From positions 1 to 49,306 of IMG/VR virus record IMGVR_UViG_3300020152_000253: a stretch of 49,306 nt of DNA; one strand, 5' to 3'. Positions within the stretch are counted from its first letter, which is position 1. The number at the start of each line of letters is the position of its first letter. The notes under the pieces are model-generated. The model was not told the DNA's origin, searched no databases, and worked only from the letters and a program-made list of their open reading frames with translations. The translations under genes and the position numbers were made by a program. Positions 26,029 to 35,484 of this stretch are shown here, piece by piece. This stretch comes from a virus.

Positions 26029-26289
26029 GTTACCGCGCGTGTTACCTCATTTGTTACCGCACCAAAGCCTTGTACCACAAGGATGTTACCGCGTTACCGC
26101 GTTTTCGTTGGGATACCCTCATTTTACATGCGAACCGCACTTTCGCATGTAAAAGCGTAGCGAACACTCACATGTAGGGTATTAAGTATGTGTAACAGTG
26201 GTAACAAAGGTAACATATATCTCTATCTCTACTCTCTCATGCCTTCCGGGCGTTACCGGTCTGTTACCGCTTCATCACTCTGCGGTAAC
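26029..26289. repeat. Iteron-like cluster: candidate replication origin
   Basis: Ten copies of GTTACC or its complement GGTAAC occur within 261 bp, starting at 26029, 26041, 26053, 26085, 26093, 26200, 26209, 26252, 26263 and 26284. Six extend to GTTACCGC (five direct, one inverted). An A+T-rich section and a perfect 13-bp inverted repeat lie in the centre. It directly follows the helicase gene. Only the last copy is inside coding sequence. Confidence 0.65.
26122..26154. repeat. 13-bp inverted repeat TTTTACATGCGAA / TTCGCATGTAAAA
   Basis: Perfect arms at 26122-26134 and 26142-26154 with a 7-nt centre, inside the iteron-like cluster. A second imperfectly centred pair, ATACCCT (26113-26119) and AGGGTAT (26176-26182), flanks it. 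Suits a protein-binding dyad at an origin or at the late-gene promoter. Confidence 0.6.
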
Positions 26290-27531
26290 GGGCCGCCACA
26301 CCGAGAGCGGGATCATGACCAGCCGGGCTGTGTCATCCTTCACCCGAATGACAAAAGTAGAGCGGCCGCTCTGAGTCTTCAGCCATCCACGGTCCCGCCA
26401 CTGCCTGATTACGGCCTCATAGCTAAATCCCTGGTCAACCAGGAACTTCTTCAGCTCATGCGGATAGATGGCCACGAACTTGGGGTCGTCGTAATCGGCA
26501 TCGCGCCATACGCCCAAATACTTCGACGGCGGCCTGAAGTCGTCTTCCTTCCCCCAGAACTGCTTGATGTTAGCTTGGCCCCACCCGCGGACGGCATCCA
26601 TGGCCCGGGAAGCGTAGTCCCCTTCCTCCAGCTCGCCGGCTACTTCCCGCATGATGGTCATGACGGCCTTCTCCGGCGAGCCATCGAGTTCCAGCACGCC
26701 GTGGAAGAGATCGCCGGCGACCCACACGAGGGCTACGTACCGGCTGAGGCGATCTGCCACGTTGCCGGGGAACTTCGTGGCCAGGATCTGCACACGGGTC
26801 AGGTAGAGCTCCCGCAACTGCTCCCACTCGCCGGCCCGCTGCATCGTGATCAGCTGGCGAACGATCTGGTAGGCAGCATGGCCATAGTGCCTGGCCGTGA
26901 CGGACTTGACCTCTCTCACCAGCTCGCCCTGTGGCTCGTCGCCGAACGGGCTGCCCCACAGGGTGAGCACGCGTGCCCGGGCCCCGCCGAATTCGGTGTT
27001 GCTGGTCAGGGGCTGCTCGCCGGTGGAGAAGCAGATTGTCCGCCAGTGCGTGACCTTCTGCACGCCGCCCTTTGCCGCGCCACGGCCCCGGCCGATACCG
27101 TTGGCCACCATGTAGAGCACGTTGGCCACGGTGCGCTGATCGGCCGTCTGGCTGTCATCCAGGAAGATGGGGAGATCGTTGAACAGGCCGCTGTAGCGTT
27201 CGGCAAAGACCTTGGTCACGTTCCACGACTTGACCAGGCCGCCCTGGTGTCCGGCCGGGAGTCCCCAGCAGCTGGCCGCCAGCTCCAGGGCCGTGGTCTT
27301 TCCGCGGGACGTGTCGCCGGCCAGGTCCACGATGAAGTTGGGCGCCTCGCAAATGTGGAGCAGCGGAGCCGCGCAGGCAGCATACAGGCAAAACATAACC
27401 CGCGGGAATGGCTGCATCTTCCTGAGCAACACGGTCCATGCGGCCAAGTCGCCGCGCGTGTCCAGTGCGGCCACCAGATGGGCGTCACCCTCGTTCTCAG
27501 GTTGGAACTGGATCCTCGATGGGTTAGCCAC
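26275..27531 (-). CDS. Replicative helicase, C-terminal half of a DUF927 domain (split gene part 2)
   Basis: 418 residues from GTG 27531 (GGAGG 9 nt upstream). The sequence enters the DUF927 domain in mid-fold: RIQFQPENEG, then RGDLAAWTVLLRKMQPFPRV, Walker A AGDTSRGKTT (71-80), SWNVTKVFAERYSGLFNDLP, Walker B PIFLDDSQT (about 121-128), and the arginine-finger type segment FGGARARVLTLWGSPFG. The preceding part of the same domain, up to its conserved GW, ends the primase gene at 33979. A 150-residue C-terminal winged-helix-like region follows. It is the ATP-driven DNA helicase of phage replication, probably acting with the primase part. Overlaps the MazG gene by 8 bp. Confidence 0.8.
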   Translation of the reverse strand: MANPSRIQFQPENEGDAHLVAALDTRGDLAAWTVLLRKMQPFPRVMFCLYAACAAPLLHICEAPNFIVDLAGDTSRGKTTALELAASCWGLPAGHQGGLVKSWNVTKVFAERYSGLFNDLPIFLDDSQTADQRTVANVLYMVANGIGRGRGAAKGGVQKVTHWRTICFSTGEQPLTSNTEFGGARARVLTLWGSPFGDEPQGELVREVKSVTARHYGHAAYQIVRQLITMQRAGEWEQLRELYLTRVQILATKFPGNVADRLSRYVALVWVAGDLFHGVLELDGSPEKAVMTIMREVAGELEEGDYASRAMDAVRGWGQANIKQFWGKEDDFRPPSKYLGVWRDADYDDPKFVAIYPHELKKFLVDQGFSYEAVIRQWRDRGWLKTQSGRSTFVIRVKDDTARLVMIPLSVWRPVTAE

Positions 27532-28240
27532 CGACCTGAGCCTCCTTGGGCGCCGCCTCCAGGAAGCGGATTGCTCTGCCGTGGGCCCGTGCATACTCCA
27601 GCTCACTCCTGGTCGATTCCCCGATGTAGCCGCCCACGTTCAGAATCAGCACCTCGTCGGCCAGGTCGATTTTCCGCTTATGGAGCTCGTCGAGGTCGGT
27701 CTTGATCTTGCGGAGCTCCTCATCCGGCAGATGGCCGAAGATCTCGTGGTCATTCTTCATGTTGCAGCCAATCGAGAGGACGATGTTACCCGCCAGCGTC
27801 TCCCGCAGGTTGGCCTCCTGAAAAGCGGCGCTGAACCGGGTGGATCCGCACAAACAAACGATCTTCGGGCTGGACACGATGCTGGCTTCCACGTTCGCCA
27901 CCTGAGCACCGTGCCCAAGAGCTACCAGACGACTTGAGAACTTGTCCACGGCCCGATGGGCCGCATCCTTCAGATCGATCCCATGCAGCGCCGCCCGGCG
28001 TGCCAGCACAAAGAGCACGTCACCTACTTCGTCGAGCACTTCGGCATCTGTGACCTGCTGGGCACCGCGCCAGTGAGTCCGATGACCACCATGCCGGCGG
28101 CACACCTTTGCCAATTCGCCCATCTCCTCGGCCAACTTGTCGCCTAGCTCGGCATCCAACCGGCCCCTGTCCTGCATTTCCTCGGGCCAGGCGATGGCAG
28201 CCAGCGCCGTGGCAAGGGTCTGGAACCTGTTCATGAACAC
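27524..28240 (-). CDS. MazG-like pyrophosphohydrolase fused to a deoxyribosyltransferase-like domain
   Basis: 238 residues from GTG 28240 (GGAGGG upstream) or 236 from ATG 28234. Residues about 10-105 carry the MazG metal motif EEMGE (36-40) and DEVGD (68-72, numbering from the ATG), as in all-alpha NTP pyrophosphohydrolases. Residues about 123-228 (IVCLCGSTRFSAAFQEANLR, DLADEVLILNVGGYIGESTR, SELEYARAHGRAIRFLE) match the nucleoside 2-deoxyribosyltransferase-like family. Both act on nucleotides, so the fusion may clean or alter the dNTP pool during phage replication. Coupled to the helicase gene that overlaps its end. Confidence 0.75.
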   Translation of the reverse strand: MFMNRFQTLATALAAIAWPEEMQDRGRLDAELGDKLAEEMGELAKVCRRHGGHRTHWRGAQQVTDAEVLDEVGDVLFVLARRAALHGIDLKDAAHRAVDKFSSRLVALGHGAQVANVEASIVSSPKIVCLCGSTRFSAAFQEANLRETLAGNIVLSIGCNMKNDHEIFGHLPDEELRKIKTDLDELHKRKIDLADEVLILNVGGYIGESTRSELEYARAHGRAIRFLEAAPKEAQVGG

Positions 28241-29165: not shown

Positions 29166-31601
29166 CTATGACACCAACTGCGATGCTGGCGGCGCCGGTA
29201 GGTCCAACGATACACCACTGACCCATACCCTTCCTCCTGTAGGGCTGAACAGGAACGCATCGGGCGCCAGTCTTGCCACGATCAGCGTGGGCGCCAGGGC
29301 CTCTGCATAGGCTCGGGCGGCCAGGGGCATCACGGCGTTGCCGATAGCCTGTCGCACATCTTGTCTGCTGCCGGCGATCTCGTACGGTCGCCCCTCGTCG
29401 TCATAGGCCGGGAACGTCTGTAGGATCCACAGTTCCCAGTCGGTGAGCGGCCGGTGCCAGGCGTTCCAAGGGCTGATGATGAAGCCCTGGGGGAACCACT
29501 CGGGCCACCAGTGGATGTTGACCCGCACGTCCTCAATGGCCGCCTGGCCACAGTACACGTCCAGACTGGCGATTATGGCCGGACTGGGACCGTTCCAGGC
29601 AATCACGCCCAGAGTACCGTTGCGGCTGGCGCAGGTCATGCGGGCATCGGCCAAGGCCTGAGCGTCGCCGTTGTGGTCGGTGGCAGTGGTGATTGTGTTG
29701 GCGGCGTCGGCGCCCTCGTTGACGTGCATGGTGCCGCCCTTGGCGTGCCGCACGATCCTGGGATCAGCCACGGCGCCGGGACCGTTGGACGTGGTAACCG
29801 ACGTGGCACCGGTAATGGCGCGGGAAGGATCGTTAGCGTCACAGACGCCATAGGCGCCATCATTCGGGGCGAAGGTAAGCCGGGGGTCTGCCAGGCTGTG
29901 ACCGCCACCACCGGGGCCGGTTCCGCCACTGACCGTTTTGCTGGGCTGGTCAGGCTCCCTGACGTTGTAGGCGTCGTTGAACTTGGGAGTCTCCAGACCC
30001 ACCCGAAGGTCGGCCACGGACGGAGCGCCGCTGCCCAAACGATCCGAAGTGGTGACCACATCCGACGGCCGGCCGCTGTCCCGCACTTCATACTTGGTGC
30101 TGTGCCGGTTCTCCCGGAACGCAAGCCGGATGTCCGACACGCTGGGCGCCCCGTTGGCCAGGTGCGTCGCTCCGGTCACGGCGCCAGCCTGTCCATCTGG
30201 CGGCGTCACCCGCATATGCGAGGCGTGGCGGTCTGCTTTGTCAGGGCACCGGGGATCGGCCTGCAGGCGGGTGTCGGCCACTGTCGATGCTCCGCCGCTC
30301 TTGCGGTGGCTCGGGTCGGCCGTCACCGTTCCCGAAGGCTGGGTGACGTCTTGCACCCAGTATGCGCCGTGGCCATTACCCATGGGTCGGTGGTGGAGGC
30401 GCACGTCGGCATAGTGCATGGCTCCAGGAAGCAACTCGGCCACGAACACTTTGCCCCAGACGGCCGGGTCAGGCCAGAACCACCGGAGTCGCTGCTTGCC
30501 GTTCTTGTCGAGCTTGGGCGTGCCGTCTGCGTTGAATAGGAGTTTGCAGAACGCCTCTGGTGGCACGATCCGGCCATCGAACGTGCGGAGCTGCCAGTGG
30601 CCGGGGCCGGGAATGTCCTTCCAGTCTCCGCCGGGCCTTATCAGGGCGAGACGCAGCCACGTCAGGAAGTCCAGGTTCGGGCAGGCGTGGTTCCGGCCGC
30701 CGGCGGGGTCACCGGGCATGGGCTTGTCGCCCAGGTAGTCCATGATCGAAGCCAGGGGCCGCTCCTGGGGCTTGTACAGGAACGGCGGGCAGGCCTGCCG
30801 GTGACGTTGCGTCCAGAAATGACGCGGGCGTGACTGCGGGGCACCGCAGACCTTGCCGGTGTCATGGTCGCCGTGGTGGGTCTCGTAGTCCATCTGGTCG
30901 GCAGACCGCCTCATGTCCTCAAGCAGGTGTTTGCTCCGGTACTTGATCCCGGGGACGTTCTCGCTGAACATGACCTTCACCGGCGTCTTGAACGGTGCCA
31001 GCGCAACCAAGTAGAAGGCTCTGGGTACCAGTCCGTTCAGGGCCCGGCTGGGCAGTTCGGCGGCGTCGGCCTCCGACTTCAGGCGGCTGTTGCCCTGGCA
31101 CGGCATGGAAGCAAAAACCACATCCAGGTCGTCACCAAAGAGTCGTACCAAGTCGTCAGGCGTGAACTCCTGCCACCCGGGCGGCGGCGTTACCCATTCG
31201 TCCACCCTGGCCCAGACATCATCGAAGCGCCAGTACCGCTGGTCGTCCAAGTTGATCAGGCCGTCAGGGTGAACACATTTCTGGATAGCGTTGTCCAGGC
31301 GCTCAGTCAGAGCCGGATCGTGAATGACCTTCGTCTTGCTGTGGAAAGCGATCCACTGTGCCCTGGTAAAGAGGTCGATGGTGTGGGCCACGCCCTCCAT
31401 ACTCATGAGCCGTTCAAACTCGCGATTGCGGACTGCGTTGTTGTCGATAGAGCCGGCGATTTCATATTCCCAGCTGACGGGCATGTCGCCCATCATGAAG
31501 GTGCCCTTGGCATCCTTGAAGCCCTTGGCTACGCCGCCAATTCCGCCAGCCAGAAAGGCAACCCTTAACCTCACGTGCTGAGCTAGCTGGGTTATGGTCA
31601 C
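29166..31601 (-). CDS. DNA (cytosine-5-)-methyltransferase with expanded repeat region
   Basis: 811 residues from a GTG that overlaps the stop of the helicase-methyltransferase gene (GTGA). Motif I FLAGGIGGVAKGF (16-28), motif IV with catalytic cysteine SMPCQGNSR (C168), motif VI ENV (214-216), motif VIII QSRPR (256-260), and the closing motif RQAIGNAVMPLAAR (750-763). Between VIII and the end, residues 398-694 are a degenerate repeat of about 41 residues: eight copies of [V/L]ADxRL, each preceded by a YxVxDxxxPSxTVTG-like segment. Ordinary enzymes have a single target recognition domain there. It methylates cytosine in DNA; repeats may each recognise a site. Probably protects phage DNA. Confidence 0.85.
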   Translation of the reverse strand: MTITQLAQHVRLRVAFLAGGIGGVAKGFKDAKGTFMMGDMPVSWEYEIAGSIDNNAVRNREFERLMSMEGVAHTIDLFTRAQWIAFHSKTKVIHDPALTERLDNAIQKCVHPDGLINLDDQRYWRFDDVWARVDEWVTPPPGWQEFTPDDLVRLFGDDLDVVFASMPCQGNSRLKSEADAAELPSRALNGLVPRAFYLVALAPFKTPVKVMFSENVPGIKYRSKHLLEDMRRSADQMDYETHHGDHDTGKVCGAPQSRPRHFWTQRHRQACPPFLYKPQERPLASIMDYLGDKPMPGDPAGGRNHACPNLDFLTWLRLALIRPGGDWKDIPGPGHWQLRTFDGRIVPPEAFCKLLFNADGTPKLDKNGKQRLRWFWPDPAVWGKVFVAELLPGAMHYADVRLHHRPMGNGHGAYWVQDVTQPSGTVTADPSHRKSGGASTVADTRLQADPRCPDKADRHASHMRVTPPDGQAGAVTGATHLANGAPSVSDIRLAFRENRHSTKYEVRDSGRPSDVVTTSDRLGSGAPSVADLRVGLETPKFNDAYNVREPDQPSKTVSGGTGPGGGGHSLADPRLTFAPNDGAYGVCDANDPSRAITGATSVTTSNGPGAVADPRIVRHAKGGTMHVNEGADAANTITTATDHNGDAQALADARMTCASRNGTLGVIAWNGPSPAIIASLDVYCGQAAIEDVRVNIHWWPEWFPQGFIISPWNAWHRPLTDWELWILQTFPAYDDEGRPYEIAGSRQDVRQAIGNAVMPLAARAYAEALAPTLIVARLAPDAFLFSPTGGRVWVSGVSLDLPAPPASQLVS
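29520..30410 (-). repeat. Degenerate tandem repeats, about 123 bp each, in the methyltransferase
   Basis: Coding repeats at the protein level: the (A/S/E)D-x-R-(L/V/I/M) motif recurs with start-to-start steps of about 43, 47, 41, 41, 41, 39 and 39 residues. Nucleotide identity between copies is low, so these are old repeats kept by selection on protein sequence. Confidence 0.8.
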
Positions 31602-33979
31602 CTTGCATCCACCTCCTCGCCAGTATCCGTGCCCTCAAGCATATCCGCCAGAGTTAGCGGCCGCATGTGACTCTGCCTGTACGCTTCCTCCACGTTCGCC
31701 TGCATGCTCCGGAAGTACGACTTCTTGAGCTCACCGCCCACAAAGCGTCGGCCCAGCTCGACTGCCACATACCCCTCCGTTCCGACTCCGCCGAACGGGC
31801 TGTAGACCAGATCATTCGGGGCGCTCCACAGCTTGACGCCCCTCTTGACGACACCGATCTGCAGAGGGCAGAGATGCCGCTCGTCGTCCGTTTCCCGGGC
31901 CTGCCTGACGTTGAGCACGTCCGTGATGCGGATTCCCTCGTCGTGGCAGGGTACCCATCGGGCTTCGGGCGTGCCGTTTTCGGTGATTACGCACTCGATG
32001 GCATCCCTCGGCATCCAGTCGGAGGAGTACCAGACCGGCCGGGCCCAGCGGATCCACTCCTGTTCGCTTACCCACCCGGCGCCTGGGTTGTAGCGGGGCG
32101 ACATGCCGGCAGGGATTGGTTCCGGGTTTTGCCCGGGCTTGCGGAACAGAAGCAGGTAATCGGCCAGAGCCATGCGCATGGCCGCCGAGTCCGTGGCCAG
32201 GCTTTTGAAGAGCAAGCCCTTCTCTTTGTTGCGCACGGCCTGGACCTGCGGATTTTTGTCGATGCACACCTCGCCGTGGTAAATCCAGCCGTTCCGCTCC
32301 ATCATGGCGATGACTCGCCCGCGGTAGTCCTGGATACCGATGTACCCGTCGCGGGAGAGCATGGCGGTCAGCTGCATCAGGTGAATGGCGCAGATCCGGC
32401 CCGGCATCAGGACCCGTAGAAGCTTCTCGGGCCCCACGAGGAACTCGAAGTGCTCAATCATGCGGGAGATCGTCTCGCAGTTTCCCACGTCCTGGACGCT
32501 GTTGCTGTAGGCATACATGCCGGGAAACGGCGGGCTGAAGATGGAGAACCCAACGGTGCCCGTCTCGATCCGGTCGATGGTCTTGATGCTGTCGCCAAGG
32601 AAGAGCGTCCAGGCCGGCCCCTTGACTACGGCCTCTTCGTACTCAGCCTCCTGGCGGGTTGTCTGCTCCAACTGGAGCCCCTGCATGTGGGTGATGATCT
32701 CATCGAACATGGCGGCCGCCTGCGCCTCCTTTCGCCTGATGTTCTCGACCACTGCGCCCTCGGTTTCGGCCGTGATCAGGTACACGTCGACGGGCCGGGT
32801 CTGGCCAAACCGCCAGCAGCGCCGTACCGCCTGGTAGTACTCCTCCCAGGAGTCACTGAGGCCCACGAAGGCCTCCCTGGCACAGTGCTGCCAGTTCATC
32901 CCGTGCCCGGCGATGCTGGGCTTGGTCACGAGAACACGGATCTTGCCGACGGCAAAGTCAAGCATCGCCTGTTCCTTGGCCTCCGGCGGGTCACTGCCCC
33001 GTACCTCGACGGCGCCGGGGATAGCCCGGGTGAGCAACTCGGACTCCCGGTTCAGGTTGCACCATACGATCCAGGGCTCGCGCCACTCGGTGTTGACCAG
33101 GTCTGCGCAGCGGGCCACCCGCTCTCCGATGCTGTCCCTGCGGGCCTGGAGCCGCTCCTGCAGGGTGGATGCCGCCATGGGGAACAGCGTGCGCATGTTG
33201 GTGGGCGTGACCTCAACAGTCTCCTGGTGGACTCGTAGTTCCGGGAGAACGAACCGTCCGTCATCGTAACCGAGATCGGACGGCCGCCGCAGGGCGACAC
33301 ACCAGGTAGCCATCCAGCGCCAGAACTCCCCCCGTGCGTGGCCCTTCAGCCGCCACTGATGCGTTGTGTTGCCATCCTGCGTGAACCACAACGCGATCAT
33401 TTCTTTGCCGCGCATGATCCCCAGGAACTCGGCGTGGTTGATGATCTCGACCAGATCGTTGGGTGCCGGCGTGGCCGTGGCGCAGAGCCGGAAGGGAATC
33501 GTGGAGGCGAACTCCGTCAAATCCTTGCGGTACACGCCCCCGAAGTTCTTCAGGATGCTGGACTCGTCAAGCACAATGCCCCGGAAGGCCGCCGGACTAA
33601 GGTGACCCATCATCTCGTAGTTGGTGATGTTGATCCCCGGCCGTACATCGGCCGCATGTCGGCAGACGGTGACCGGGATGCCAAACTCGTGACCGATCTC
33701 GGCTGTCTGTCTGGAGACCGCCAGAGGGGCAACGATCAGCACGCTGCCGCCGGTTCGCCGGCATACCTGGTTGGCCCACTCGAGCTGCATCGGTGTTTTG
33801 CCCAGCCCGCAGTCTGCGAAGATCGCACTCTTGCCCTTGGCCAGGCTCCACCGGGTAATCTCCTGCTGCCAGGGAAACAGCTTCTGGTTCAGATCGCATG
33901 CCGGCATGATGAAACCGGTTGCGTTGGGCTTGATCCGTTTGCTTTCGACCCATTCGTCGTAGGAGAGTGAACGGTCCAT
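31598..33979 (-). CDS. SNF2-type helicase fused to a DNA methyltransferase
   Basis: 793 residues from ATG 33979, which shares a base with the primase stop (TGATG). Helicase half: FADCGLGKTP (motif I, 54-63), LDESS (motif II, 137-141), ATATPAP (motif III) and QAVRRCWRFGQTRPVDVYLI (motif VI, about 383-402), all SNF2-like. Then a beta-class amino-methyltransferase: catalytic motif FSPPF (481-485) precedes the AdoMet-binding YSPFGGVGTEG (726-736). SPPF suggests N4-cytosine or N6-adenine modification. Helicase-methyltransferase fusions in phages, such as P1 DarB, guard DNA against restriction. Partnered with the cytosine methyltransferase downstream. Confidence 0.85.
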   Translation of the reverse strand: MDRSLSYDEWVESKRIKPNATGFIMPACDLNQKLFPWQQEITRWSLAKGKSAIFADCGLGKTPMQLEWANQVCRRTGGSVLIVAPLAVSRQTAEIGHEFGIPVTVCRHAADVRPGINITNYEMMGHLSPAAFRGIVLDESSILKNFGGVYRKDLTEFASTIPFRLCATATPAPNDLVEIINHAEFLGIMRGKEMIALWFTQDGNTTHQWRLKGHARGEFWRWMATWCVALRRPSDLGYDDGRFVLPELRVHQETVEVTPTNMRTLFPMAASTLQERLQARRDSIGERVARCADLVNTEWREPWIVWCNLNRESELLTRAIPGAVEVRGSDPPEAKEQAMLDFAVGKIRVLVTKPSIAGHGMNWQHCAREAFVGLSDSWEEYYQAVRRCWRFGQTRPVDVYLITAETEGAVVENIRRKEAQAAAMFDEIITHMQGLQLEQTTRQEAEYEEAVVKGPAWTLFLGDSIKTIDRIETGTVGFSIFSPPFPGMYAYSNSVQDVGNCETISRMIEHFEFLVGPEKLLRVLMPGRICAIHLMQLTAMLSRDGYIGIQDYRGRVIAMMERNGWIYHGEVCIDKNPQVQAVRNKEKGLLFKSLATDSAAMRMALADYLLLFRKPGQNPEPIPAGMSPRYNPGAGWVSEQEWIRWARPVWYSSDWMPRDAIECVITENGTPEARWVPCHDEGIRITDVLNVRQARETDDERHLCPLQIGVVKRGVKLWSAPNDLVYSPFGGVGTEGYVAVELGRRFVGGELKKSYFRSMQANVEEAYRQSHMRPLTLADMLEGTDTGEEVDAR

Positions 33980-35484
33980 CAGGTGGTCTGCTCCTCCTCT
34001 GCGTCGTCGGTGCCCAGGATGTTCCGGCCGGCGACAAAGAGTTGTCCGGCACCGTCGCTGTCCTTTCGCCATCCCGACACGCTCACTACGGTCTGCTCTG
34101 GGATAGTCGCAAGGTTGGCGGTCTCGTAATCGGCCAAGTACTGCACCAGGCGGTTCGACGTGTTGCTGGTGACCAGGAGACCCCGGCCGGAGAGCCGCAC
34201 GATGCGGCTCCTGTCGGCCAAGGTGTCTCGCTCTACGGCCATCGATCGCCAGCGCCTATCCCGCAGGAGGGCGATGCGTACCGTCTCCAAGTCGGTGTCG
34301 AGGTTTCGAGATCGTTCGGTGATCACCACAGGCGTCGCCACGATTTGGCGAAACTTGGTCTCACCGTCTCGACTGGTCGCCTCGAAGACTCCCTTGTCGT
34401 TCACCAGCCATCGCTCCGGAAACACAGCCGTCTCGCTCACTGGCGCCGTTGGGAGTCGGTCGAGTACTGGCTCCAGTTCCGGTGACCCGTCATCGCCTGC
34501 GGTCTTCGCTACGACCGGTGCCCGGGCCATCAGTTCACGGAGTTGCTCCGCTGTGCCGCCCGCCAGGATCCAGTCAGTGATGTCTTTGGGGTCGCCCTTC
34601 TTCTGCCAGGCCAGCGGTAATGAGAGGAGACGAACCTCCGCAGCCACCTTCGCCAGCTGATCAGCCACCAGGCGGGCGCCGTCCTGGCCTTCGGGGTCAA
34701 CGTCGTAGCAGATCGTGACCCTCTTGCCGGCGAGCGGTTCCGAGAAGGCCTTTCCCCAGGACTTCTCTCCGGCCGTGCCGGTAATCGCCGGGATGCCCAG
34801 GGACCAGGCAGCCAGGGTGTCCATCTCGCCGGCACAGAGCAACAGCTCCTTCTCCTGCAGAGCCCAGGCTGGGTAAAGCCTGGGCCTTTCCGTGCCCGGT
34901 CCCCAGACAACCTTTCGGCCGGGGTACTTGTGCTGCCAGTCGTAAAGCCTGGTTCGCACTGTGGAGCCCTTCTTGTCAAGAACGGGTATCACGATGCGAT
35001 GCTGTTGGCCATCGTAGCCCAACCTGGCCCGGCGGATGATCTCAGGTGAGAGCCGCCGCTTCTCCTGCAAGAAGGTGATAACCTCCGGGTGACGCTCAAG
35101 GGCGGCCACTTGGCGCTCCAGCTCGCCATCTGCCAGAGACATGGCTACCGGTATGGCCGGAGAGCGGCGGGCGGCCGGGGCAAGCCTGTCTTGCAGGTCC
35201 ACCCCGGCCCGGGCCGCCAGTTCCTTGACAGCCGCCGCCTTGTCAACGCCTCGCCAGCGCTCGTAGAAGTCGACCACATCGCCCGCTGCTCCACACCCAA
35301 AGCACTTGAATCGCTGGCCACCATCGGCGGCCTGGTAGATGGTGAAGCTGGGGTCCGTGTCGCCGTGAAACAGGCATTTGCCCTTGAACTCGCTGCCTTC
35401 TTGCCTCAGCTGGAACCCGGCCTCAACAGCCAGTTCCTCCAGGCGAAGCCTTGACTTGATGTCGGGGATGGTGCTGTCGGTCAC
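33979..35484 (-). CDS. Primase with N-terminal half of a DUF927 helicase domain (split gene part 1)
   Basis: 501 residues from a GTG behind GGGGGT. Zinc-binding domain C37-x2-H40 and C61-x2-C64 (CLFH, CFGC), catalytic TOPRIM domain with LLLCAGEMDTLAAW (E220) and ICYDVDPEGQDGARL (D251, D253). From about residue 355 it runs into DUF927: FPERWLVNDKGVFEAT, TPVVITERSRN, SGRGLLVTSNTSNRLVQYLA and the conserved GW (471-472), and stops at QLFVAGRNILGTDD about 25 residues later. The rest of that domain is encoded at 26275-27531. It makes primers for phage replication; coupled to the methyltransferase gene. Confidence 0.85.
   Translation of the reverse strand: MTDSTIPDIKSRLRLEELAVEAGFQLRQEGSEFKGKCLFHGDTDPSFTIYQAADGGQRFKCFGCGAAGDVVDFYERWRGVDKAAAVKELAARAGVDLQDRLAPAARRSPAIPVAMSLADGELERQVAALERHPEVITFLQEKRRLSPEIIRRARLGYDGQQHRIVIPVLDKKGSTVRTRLYDWQHKYPGRKVVWGPGTERPRLYPAWALQEKELLLCAGEMDTLAAWSLGIPAITGTAGEKSWGKAFSEPLAGKRVTICYDVDPEGQDGARLVADQLAKVAAEVRLLSLPLAWQKKGDPKDITDWILAGGTAEQLRELMARAPVVAKTAGDDGSPELEPVLDRLPTAPVSETAVFPERWLVNDKGVFEATSRDGETKFRQIVATPVVITERSRNLDTDLETVRIALLRDRRWRSMAVERDTLADRSRIVRLSGRGLLVTSNTSNRLVQYLADYETANLATIPEQTVVSVSGWRKDSDGAGQLFVAGRNILGTDDAEEEQTT

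What the first reader, a model, noticed from the sequence alone, without database searches (positions are those of the whole stretch)
29520..30410. Cytosine methyltransferase with eight ADxRL motifs where one recognition domain is expected
Between motif VIII and the last conserved motif the enzyme carries about 300 residues of degenerate repeats with an (A/S/E)D-x-R-(L/V/I/M) motif stepping 39-47 residues, each preceded by PSxTVTG-like sequence. Multispecific phage methyltransferases of Bacillus (SPR, phi3T) carry several recognition domains in this position. Here the repeats are short and numerous, which might give many target sites, DNA wrapping, or variable specificity by recombination between repeats.
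Basis: partly seen in the sequence, partly recalled or inferred. Interest (0 to 1): 0.75.

Follow-up and report, generated by a model that had tools for sequence, protein, structure and literature searches.

The report
Phage methyltransferase with seven recognition modules
This phage gene encodes a DNA-marking enzyme that carries seven side-by-side copies of the part that normally reads one DNA target, and its relatives swap such copies like cassettes, so one enzyme could shield the phage from many different bacterial restriction enzymes.

Summary
ORF 29166-31601(-) (811 aa) is a C5-cytosine methyltransferase with intact catalytic motifs, and its eight (A/S/E)DxR(L/V/I/M) motifs sit where stated. 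Seven are ends of a ~40-aa module; the first (aa 398) is a leader, so there are 7 modules, not 8.

In 167 relatives the same module occurs 3-10 times (usually 5-6). It is homologous to the single target-recognition core just before motif IX of ordinary C5 methyltransferases: profiles match in both directions, only at that place. Residues that distinguish module types cluster where the two recognition loops of M.HhaI align. Enzymes with near-identical cores differ by insertion, loss or replacement of whole modules, and one array almost never holds two alike modules (2 pairs against 14-47 expected).

Best explanation: a multispecific phage methyltransferase that works like the Bacillus SPR/phi3T enzymes, each module reading its own target, with modules exchanged between phages. 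DNA wrapping and intragenic recombination are not supported. AlphaFold did not fold the repeats, no target sequence is known, and activity is untested. New variant of a known kind.

The parts
29166..31601 (-). C5-cytosine DNA methyltransferase CDS, 811 aa, GTG start, GGAGG at 31616-31612; start overlaps the stop codon of the upstream gene (GTGA)
   Evidence: Pfam PF00145 E=1.6e-12; phrog_116 DNA methyltransferase
31533..31562 (-). Motif I (VAFLAGGIGG), SAM binding
   Evidence: sequence; aligned in A1
31095..31103 (-). Motif IV PCQ with the catalytic Cys168 (many relatives have PCK)
   Evidence: P167 and C168 invariant in the 44-sequence alignment A2
30954..30962 (-). Motif VI ENV
   Evidence: invariant in A2
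30822..30836 (-). Motif VIII QSRPR
   Evidence: Q256, R258, R260 invariant in A2
30396..30410 (-). First 'ADVRL' (aa 398-402): leader of the array, not a module end
   Evidence: relatives carry a leader such as EEYRLEHIPR here; weak HMM score of 12.3 bits
30267..30392 (-). Module 1 (aa 404-445) ..GAYWVQDVTQPSGTVTADPSHRKSGGASTVADTR
   Evidence: HMM 35.3 bits
30126..30239 (-). Module 2 (aa 455-492) ..SHMRVTPPDGQAGAVTGATHLANGAPSVSDIR
   Evidence: HMM 33.9 bits
30003..30116 (-). Module 3 (aa 496-533) ..TKYEVRDSGRPSDVVTTSDRLGSGAPSVADLR; second-loop segment 82% identical to a module of L013
   Evidence: HMM 31.6 bits
29880..29984 (-). Module 4 (aa 540-574) ..DAYNVREPDQPSKTVSGGTGPGGGGHSLADPR
   Evidence: HMM 38.0 bits; closest to a module of L010
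29757..29861 (-). Module 5 (aa 581-615) DGAYGVCDANDPSRAITGATSVTTSNGPGAVADPR
   Evidence: HMM 36.3 bits
29640..29750 (-). Module 6 (aa 618-654) ..GGTMHVNEGADAANTITTATDHNGDAQALADAR
   Evidence: HMM 19.6 bits
29523..29624 (-). Module 7 (aa 660-693) NGTLGVIAWNGPSPAIIASLDVYCGQAAIEDVR; resembles type 14, the usual last type of the window's subfamily
   Evidence: HMM 20.9 bits
29409..29456 (-). Motif IX (HRPLTDWELWILQTFP)
   Evidence: second Pfam PF00145 stretch, aa 716-769
29325..29351 (-). Motif X (..AIGNAVMP)
   Evidence: Pfam PF00145 stretch; G754, N755, V757 invariant in A2
31598..34072 (-). Upstream gene, overlapping by 4 bases: SNF2-like helicase with a C-terminal N6/N4-type methyltransferase domain
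   Evidence: Pfam and PHROGs

Best explanation
The gene encodes an orphan, multispecific C5-cytosine methyltransferase of a temperate tailed phage. One catalytic domain is shared by seven tandem ~40-aa target-recognition modules. Each module is a diverged copy of the recognition core that ordinary C5 enzymes carry once, just before motif IX, and each probably presents its own pair of recognition loops and directs methylation of its own short target. The phage DNA would thereby be protected against several host restriction enzymes at once. The set of modules changes by insertion, loss and replacement of whole modules through recombination between phages. SHOWN: catalytic motifs, seven modules, homology of the module to the single-copy recognition core, clustering of type-determining residues at the M.HhaI loop positions, whole-module differences between near-identical enzymes, and avoidance of alike modules within an array. 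INFERRED: that each module binds DNA, that each reads a different target, that the enzyme is active, and that its role is escape from restriction.
For: C5 enzyme with motifs I, IV, VI, VIII, IX and X and no obvious lesion; the catalytic part is predicted mostly at pLDDT >90 and Foldseek matches DNMT1/MET1/M.MpeI structures. Seven modules. Relatives in phages and prophages carry 3-10 modules: 167 proteins, 1002 modules. HOMOLOGY: the module profile's sub-threshold hits in 12 whole genomes (9 at E 0.01-0.1) include three ordinary C5 methyltransferases, each exactly before motif IX (L181, L182, L183; 11.4-12.0 bits). Reciprocally, a profile of that element from 7 ordinary enzymes gives 163 hits of 4 bits or more in the family, all inside modules (35% of residues), none outside. 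LOOPS: with the module's T28 set on T250 of M.HhaI, the columns that differ between types but not within types are mainly 14-20 and 32-37, 40, i.e. HhaI 236-242 and 254-259 plus 262, covering Q237, R240, Y254 and G257; D44 and R46 are invariant. EXCHANGE: 401 of 513 pairs with core identity of 80% or more differ in type string; L056 against L084 (core 98.5%) differ by one inserted module, L117 against L128 by one replaced module. NON-REDUNDANCY: within-array pairs of 65% identity or more: 2 observed, 47 expected on free shuffling, 14.5 when shuffled only at equal index and array length. PRECEDENT: Bacillus temperate phages array multiple target recognition domains in one polypeptide (PMC12707154; PMC8936443).
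Against: No recognition sequence is known for any module and no methylation data were available. AlphaFold failed on the repeats in two attempts, so the fold of the array is unknown. A direct profile comparison with a small set of Bacillus phage and HhaI recognition domains keeps the register but is not significant (E=0.09, probability 0.6%), and no solved structure matched the module profile. Certain types have fixed places (type 0 last, type 2 mostly first), so some modules may be structural. The shuffles do not fully remove common descent of arrays. The window's modules are the most diverged sampled (all singleton types; modules 6 and 7 score only about 20 bits), so some may be inactive.
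Confidence: 0.75

Rival explanations
1. Mostly dormant array: only one or two modules (perhaps the positionally fixed last one) read DNA; the others are inactive or drifting copies kept as a reservoir or spacer.
For: The last module type is almost always the same (type 0/A, relative position 1.00) and the first two places are also mostly fixed. The window's modules 6 and 7 score only about 20 bits and have lost the PxxTVTG pattern.
Against: D and R of the module end are invariant in nearly all 1002 modules and loop residues are conserved within each type across distant enzymes, which is not expected of drifting copies. Alike modules are avoided within arrays.
Confidence: 0.13
2. The repeats form one extended DNA-binding or wrapping structure that reads a single long or composite site, or raises affinity without giving separate specificities.
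For: Regular spacing and invariant end residues would suit a solenoid; the fold is unknown.
Against: Module number varies from 3 to 10 and single modules are inserted or replaced in near-identical enzymes. The region is acidic or neutral (net -4 in the window, about +0.1 per module in the family). The module equals the single recognition core of ordinary enzymes.
Confidence: 0.07
3. The enzyme methylates host or phage DNA for regulation or packaging rather than for escape from restriction; module diversity follows regulatory sites.
For: Orphan phage methyltransferases can act in regulation or packaging (PMC12707154). The gene overlaps a helicase-methyltransferase gene in a metabolism block.
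Against: Rapid turnover and non-redundancy of modules fit a changing set of restriction challenges better than conserved regulatory sites; this is inference only.
Confidence: 0.1

Closest known systems
Multispecific C5-methyltransferases of Bacillus temperate phages (M.SPRI, M.phi3TI/M.SPbetaI, M.H2I; also M.BssHII and M.phiBssHII)
   Same: One catalytic domain; tandem recognition units in the variable region between motifs VIII and IX; TRDs of about 40 aa with a central T-(V/L/I) doublet (unit size from my knowledge of Trautner 1996; sequences of SPbeta and SPR read here); temperate phages.
   Different: SPbeta and SPR proteins are 443 and 439 aa, with three units discernible by eye in SPR (three specificities also from memory). 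Here there are 7, and 3-10 in the family. The modules share an invariant D-x-R end not seen in SPR/SPbeta. No close sequence similarity of core or modules. Specificity unknown.
PHROG 116 / 32684 and proteins annotated 'DNA cytosine methyltransferase' in Pseudomonas phages Dobby, D14H, LKA5, H66 and Sinorhizobium phage PBC5
   Same: Same protein family and same module, 4-8 copies.
   Different: About 30% identity to the window; none of the window's modules falls in a shared type at the clustering level used. The annotations do not mention the array.
Ordinary monospecific C5-methyltransferases (M.HhaI type; L181, L182, L183)
   Same: Catalytic motifs, and one copy of the module's W-D-x-P-A-x-T-(V/I/L)-T...G...P..R core before motif IX.
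   Different: One copy instead of seven.

Membership tests
C5-cytosine DNA methyltransferase (PF00145) | Motifs I, IV (PC), VI (ENV), VIII (QxRxR), IX and X in order | tested here: met
   Pfam E=1.6e-12; invariant columns in A2; Foldseek to DNMT1/MET1/M.MpeI
C5-cytosine DNA methyltransferase (PF00145) | Methylates C5 of cytosine | not testable with these tools
   no methylation data for this record
Multispecific C5-MTases of the SPR/phi3T kind | Several tandem recognition units of about 40 aa between motifs VIII and IX | tested here: met
   seven modules at aa 404-693
Multispecific C5-MTases of the SPR/phi3T kind | Each unit homologous to a C5-MTase recognition domain | tested here: met
   profiles match in both directions with the single pre-motif-IX core of ordinary enzymes
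Multispecific C5-MTases of the SPR/phi3T kind | Sequence relationship of the units to the Bacillus TRDs themselves | tested here: inconclusive
   hhalign keeps the register, E=0.09, probability 0.6%; HMM below threshold on mtbP
Multispecific C5-MTases of the SPR/phi3T kind | Each unit confers its own target specificity | not testable with these tools
   indirect only: loop-column diversity and non-redundancy
Multispecific C5-MTases of the SPR/phi3T kind | Encoded by a temperate phage | tested here: met
   integrase, terminase, portal, major head protein and protease in PHROGs

The most novel reading that the evidence does not exclude
A widespread family of phage and prophage methyltransferases, mostly in Proteobacteria, stores anti-restriction specificities as an exchangeable cassette array of 3-10 recognition modules on one catalytic domain, each module reading a distinct target, with array content shaped by the restriction enzymes of the hosts. 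The window would be a seven-target enzyme.
Probability: 0.5. Interest if true: 0.75.

Novelty: new variant of a known kind. Interest (0 to 1): 0.62.

Why it matters
If each module is a separate specificity, this is a natural plug-in code for DNA recognition with about a hundred module types at the clustering level used, already recombined by evolution. It would allow the target of each module to be read off by methyl-sequencing a few enzymes that differ by one module, explain how temperate phages resist many restriction systems at once, and supply parts for programmable C5 methylation. It would also make testable how one catalytic site is shared by several recognition units, which is unresolved for the Bacillus enzymes as far as I know.

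Tried and rejected
(1) AlphaFold on the window protein with 43 relatives, and on a four-module relative (L150) with 59 others: catalytic domain good in the first, repeats at pLDDT about 25-42 in both; no structural claim is made for the repeats. (2) First relative search with the window protein alone found nothing; an alignment with phage relatives was needed. (3) Module profile against solved structures: only chance hits to NF-kappa-B. (4) Module profile against the SPbeta/SPR/HhaI recognition domains: not significant. (5) DNA wrapping: rejected on charge and module turnover. (6) Recombination among the window's own repeats: rejected, 41% mean DNA identity. (7) Eight repeats: reduced to seven. 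(8) A search for DUF927 in 14 records that carry members of the family found none, so the split seen in the window could not be compared there. (9) Literature: seven searches in the held open library gave reviews of the Bacillus enzymes but no description of arrays like this one; the original Trautner 1996 and Sethmann 1999 papers are not held, so absence from the literature is not shown. (10) Association of module types with palindrome avoidance in phage genomes was considered and not run, because host relatedness would confound it.

Full report
WHAT IS THERE. The minus-strand ORF 29166-31601 encodes 811 aa from a GTG start that overlaps the stop codon of the upstream gene, with GGAGG about 10 bases before it. 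Pfam PF00145 matches at E=1.6e-12, PHROGs name it DNA methyltransferase, and motifs I, IV (PCQ), VI (ENV), VIII (QSRPR), IX and X are in order, with key residues of IV, VI, VIII, IX and X invariant across 44 sequences. The predicted catalytic part is confident and matches DNMT1, MET1 and M.MpeI structures.

THE REPEATS. The eight ADxRL-like motifs are at aa 398, 442, 489, 530, 571, 612, 651 and 690, spaced 39-47. Shuffled sequence gives 0.07 on average. A profile of the unit in relatives finds seven full modules in the window, 19.6-38.0 bits. The first motif has no TV element and lies where the nearest relatives carry a leader such as EEYRLEHIPR, so the count is seven modules. The unit reads roughly GGKYGVVPWDEPAGTVTGASGPGNGAFSVADPR in the family, with D and R of the end nearly invariant. 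The window's own modules share only 22% aa and 41% DNA identity on average.

RELATIVES. Tblastn found 32 phage records. Profile-guided scans found many more: 572 relatives among the first 599 viral candidates and 198 among 301 genome candidates, with 80 of each kept. In 167 proteins the module count is 3 (3 proteins), 4 (11), 5 (46), 6 (60), 7 (24), 8 (18), 9 (3) and 10 (2); for the window this count of 8 includes the weak leader hit. Most sources are Proteobacteria (Pseudomonas, Sphingomonas, rhizobia, Burkholderia, Cupriavidus and others), with a few other phyla among metagenome bins.

WHAT A MODULE IS. The module profile, run over 12 whole genomes, finds the arrays and then, below threshold, nine marginal hits; three of these are ordinary C5 methyltransferases and lie directly before motif IX: YPAVYGRMEWGKPAPTMTGQCFGFGNGRFGHPEQHR (L181), YPGVYGRMVWDEPAPTLTTQFYGFGNGRFGHPEQDR (L183) and [37 protein letters not shown] (L182). 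A profile built from that single element in seven ordinary enzymes hits the family 163 times at 4 bits or more, every time inside a module and never outside, though modules are only 35% of residues. The module is thus a tandemly multiplied copy of the recognition core of ordinary enzymes.

WHERE TYPES DIFFER. Average-linkage clustering gives 111 types, 61 of them with two or more members. Comparing entropy between and within types, the type-determining columns are mainly 14-20 (apart from 19) and 32-37 plus 40, while V19, W22, V29 and 42-46 are shared. Setting T28 on T250 of M.HhaI (the sequence I supplied was verified identical to the solved chain), these columns fall on HhaI 236-242 and 254-259, which include Q237, R240, Y254 and G257 of the two recognition loops. 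That these residues contact bases in M.HhaI is from my knowledge of that enzyme, not tested here.

HOW ARRAYS CHANGE. Of 513 pairs with core identity of 80% or more, 401 differ in type string. L056 and L084 (core 98.5%) differ by one 40-aa insertion; L117 and L128 by replacement of one module while the next modules are nearly unchanged; Dobby and D14H by replacement and loss. Order is mostly kept: 77 of 945 co-occurring ordered pairs are in the minority order, and the first, second, penultimate and last places have preferred types. Alike modules (65% identity or more) occur within one array in 2 pairs, against 47 expected on free shuffling, 27 when first, middle and last are kept, and 14.5 when shuffled only among modules of equal index and array length. 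Common descent of arrays accounts for part of this, but the strictest shuffle still gives a deficit (minimum 6 in 300 shuffles).

MECHANISM. The most economical account is one catalytic domain with exchangeable recognition modules, each reading its own short target, as in the Bacillus phage enzymes (PMC12707154 and PMC8936443). The phage is temperate by its integrase and has terminase, portal, head and tail genes, so protection against host restriction is the likely benefit. Number of targets, activity and role remain inferred.

COMPARISON AND NOVELTY. It works like M.SPRI and M.phi3TI. Direct sequence relationship of the modules to those recognition domains was tested and is not significant, so membership in that exact family is not claimed; both are C5 enzymes with a multiplied recognition core. 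Differences are the number of units, the invariant D-x-R end, the host range and the evident cassette exchange. In the held literature I found no description of this family, but subscription papers and REBASE were not searchable.

LIMITS. No fold for the repeats, no methylome, no target. The window's modules are the most diverged sampled; their best matches elsewhere are 45-61%, for example module 3 with TTSDRLGSGAPS against TTSDRVGSGALS in L013.

Noticed in passing
window 34000-34380(-) and 27049-27471(-): The DUF927 primase-helicase domain (PF06048) is split over two genes about 6.5 kb apart: profile 13-134 at the end of the CHC2/Toprim primase ORF 33979-35484, and profile 146-283 in ORF 26275-27606. 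The C5 methyltransferase, the SNF2-methyltransferase and a MazG gene lie between them. It may be a fractured gene split by an inserted block.
   Followed up: partly
window 31598-34072(-): An SNF2-like helicase is fused to an N6/N4-type methyltransferase domain in one ORF, directly upstream of and overlapping the C5 methyltransferase.
   Followed up: no
A1 alignment; window 31095-31103: Other family members have PCK instead of PCQ in motif IV; the window keeps PCQ.
   Followed up: no
L118 and L160 (Asticcacaulis): My motif-based ORF picker did not retrieve these two members; whole-genome search shows at least four modules in a 780-aa open frame for the genome of L118.
   Followed up: partly
L180 51-1856 (Staphylococcus phage CUB-EPI_14): A 601-aa SPbeta-like C5 methyltransferase with several possible recognition units and a long insert before motif IX.
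   Followed up: no
window about 30411-30584(-), aa about 340-397: A stretch of about 60 aa between motif VIII and the array is absent from the phage relatives aligned in A1.
   Followed up: no
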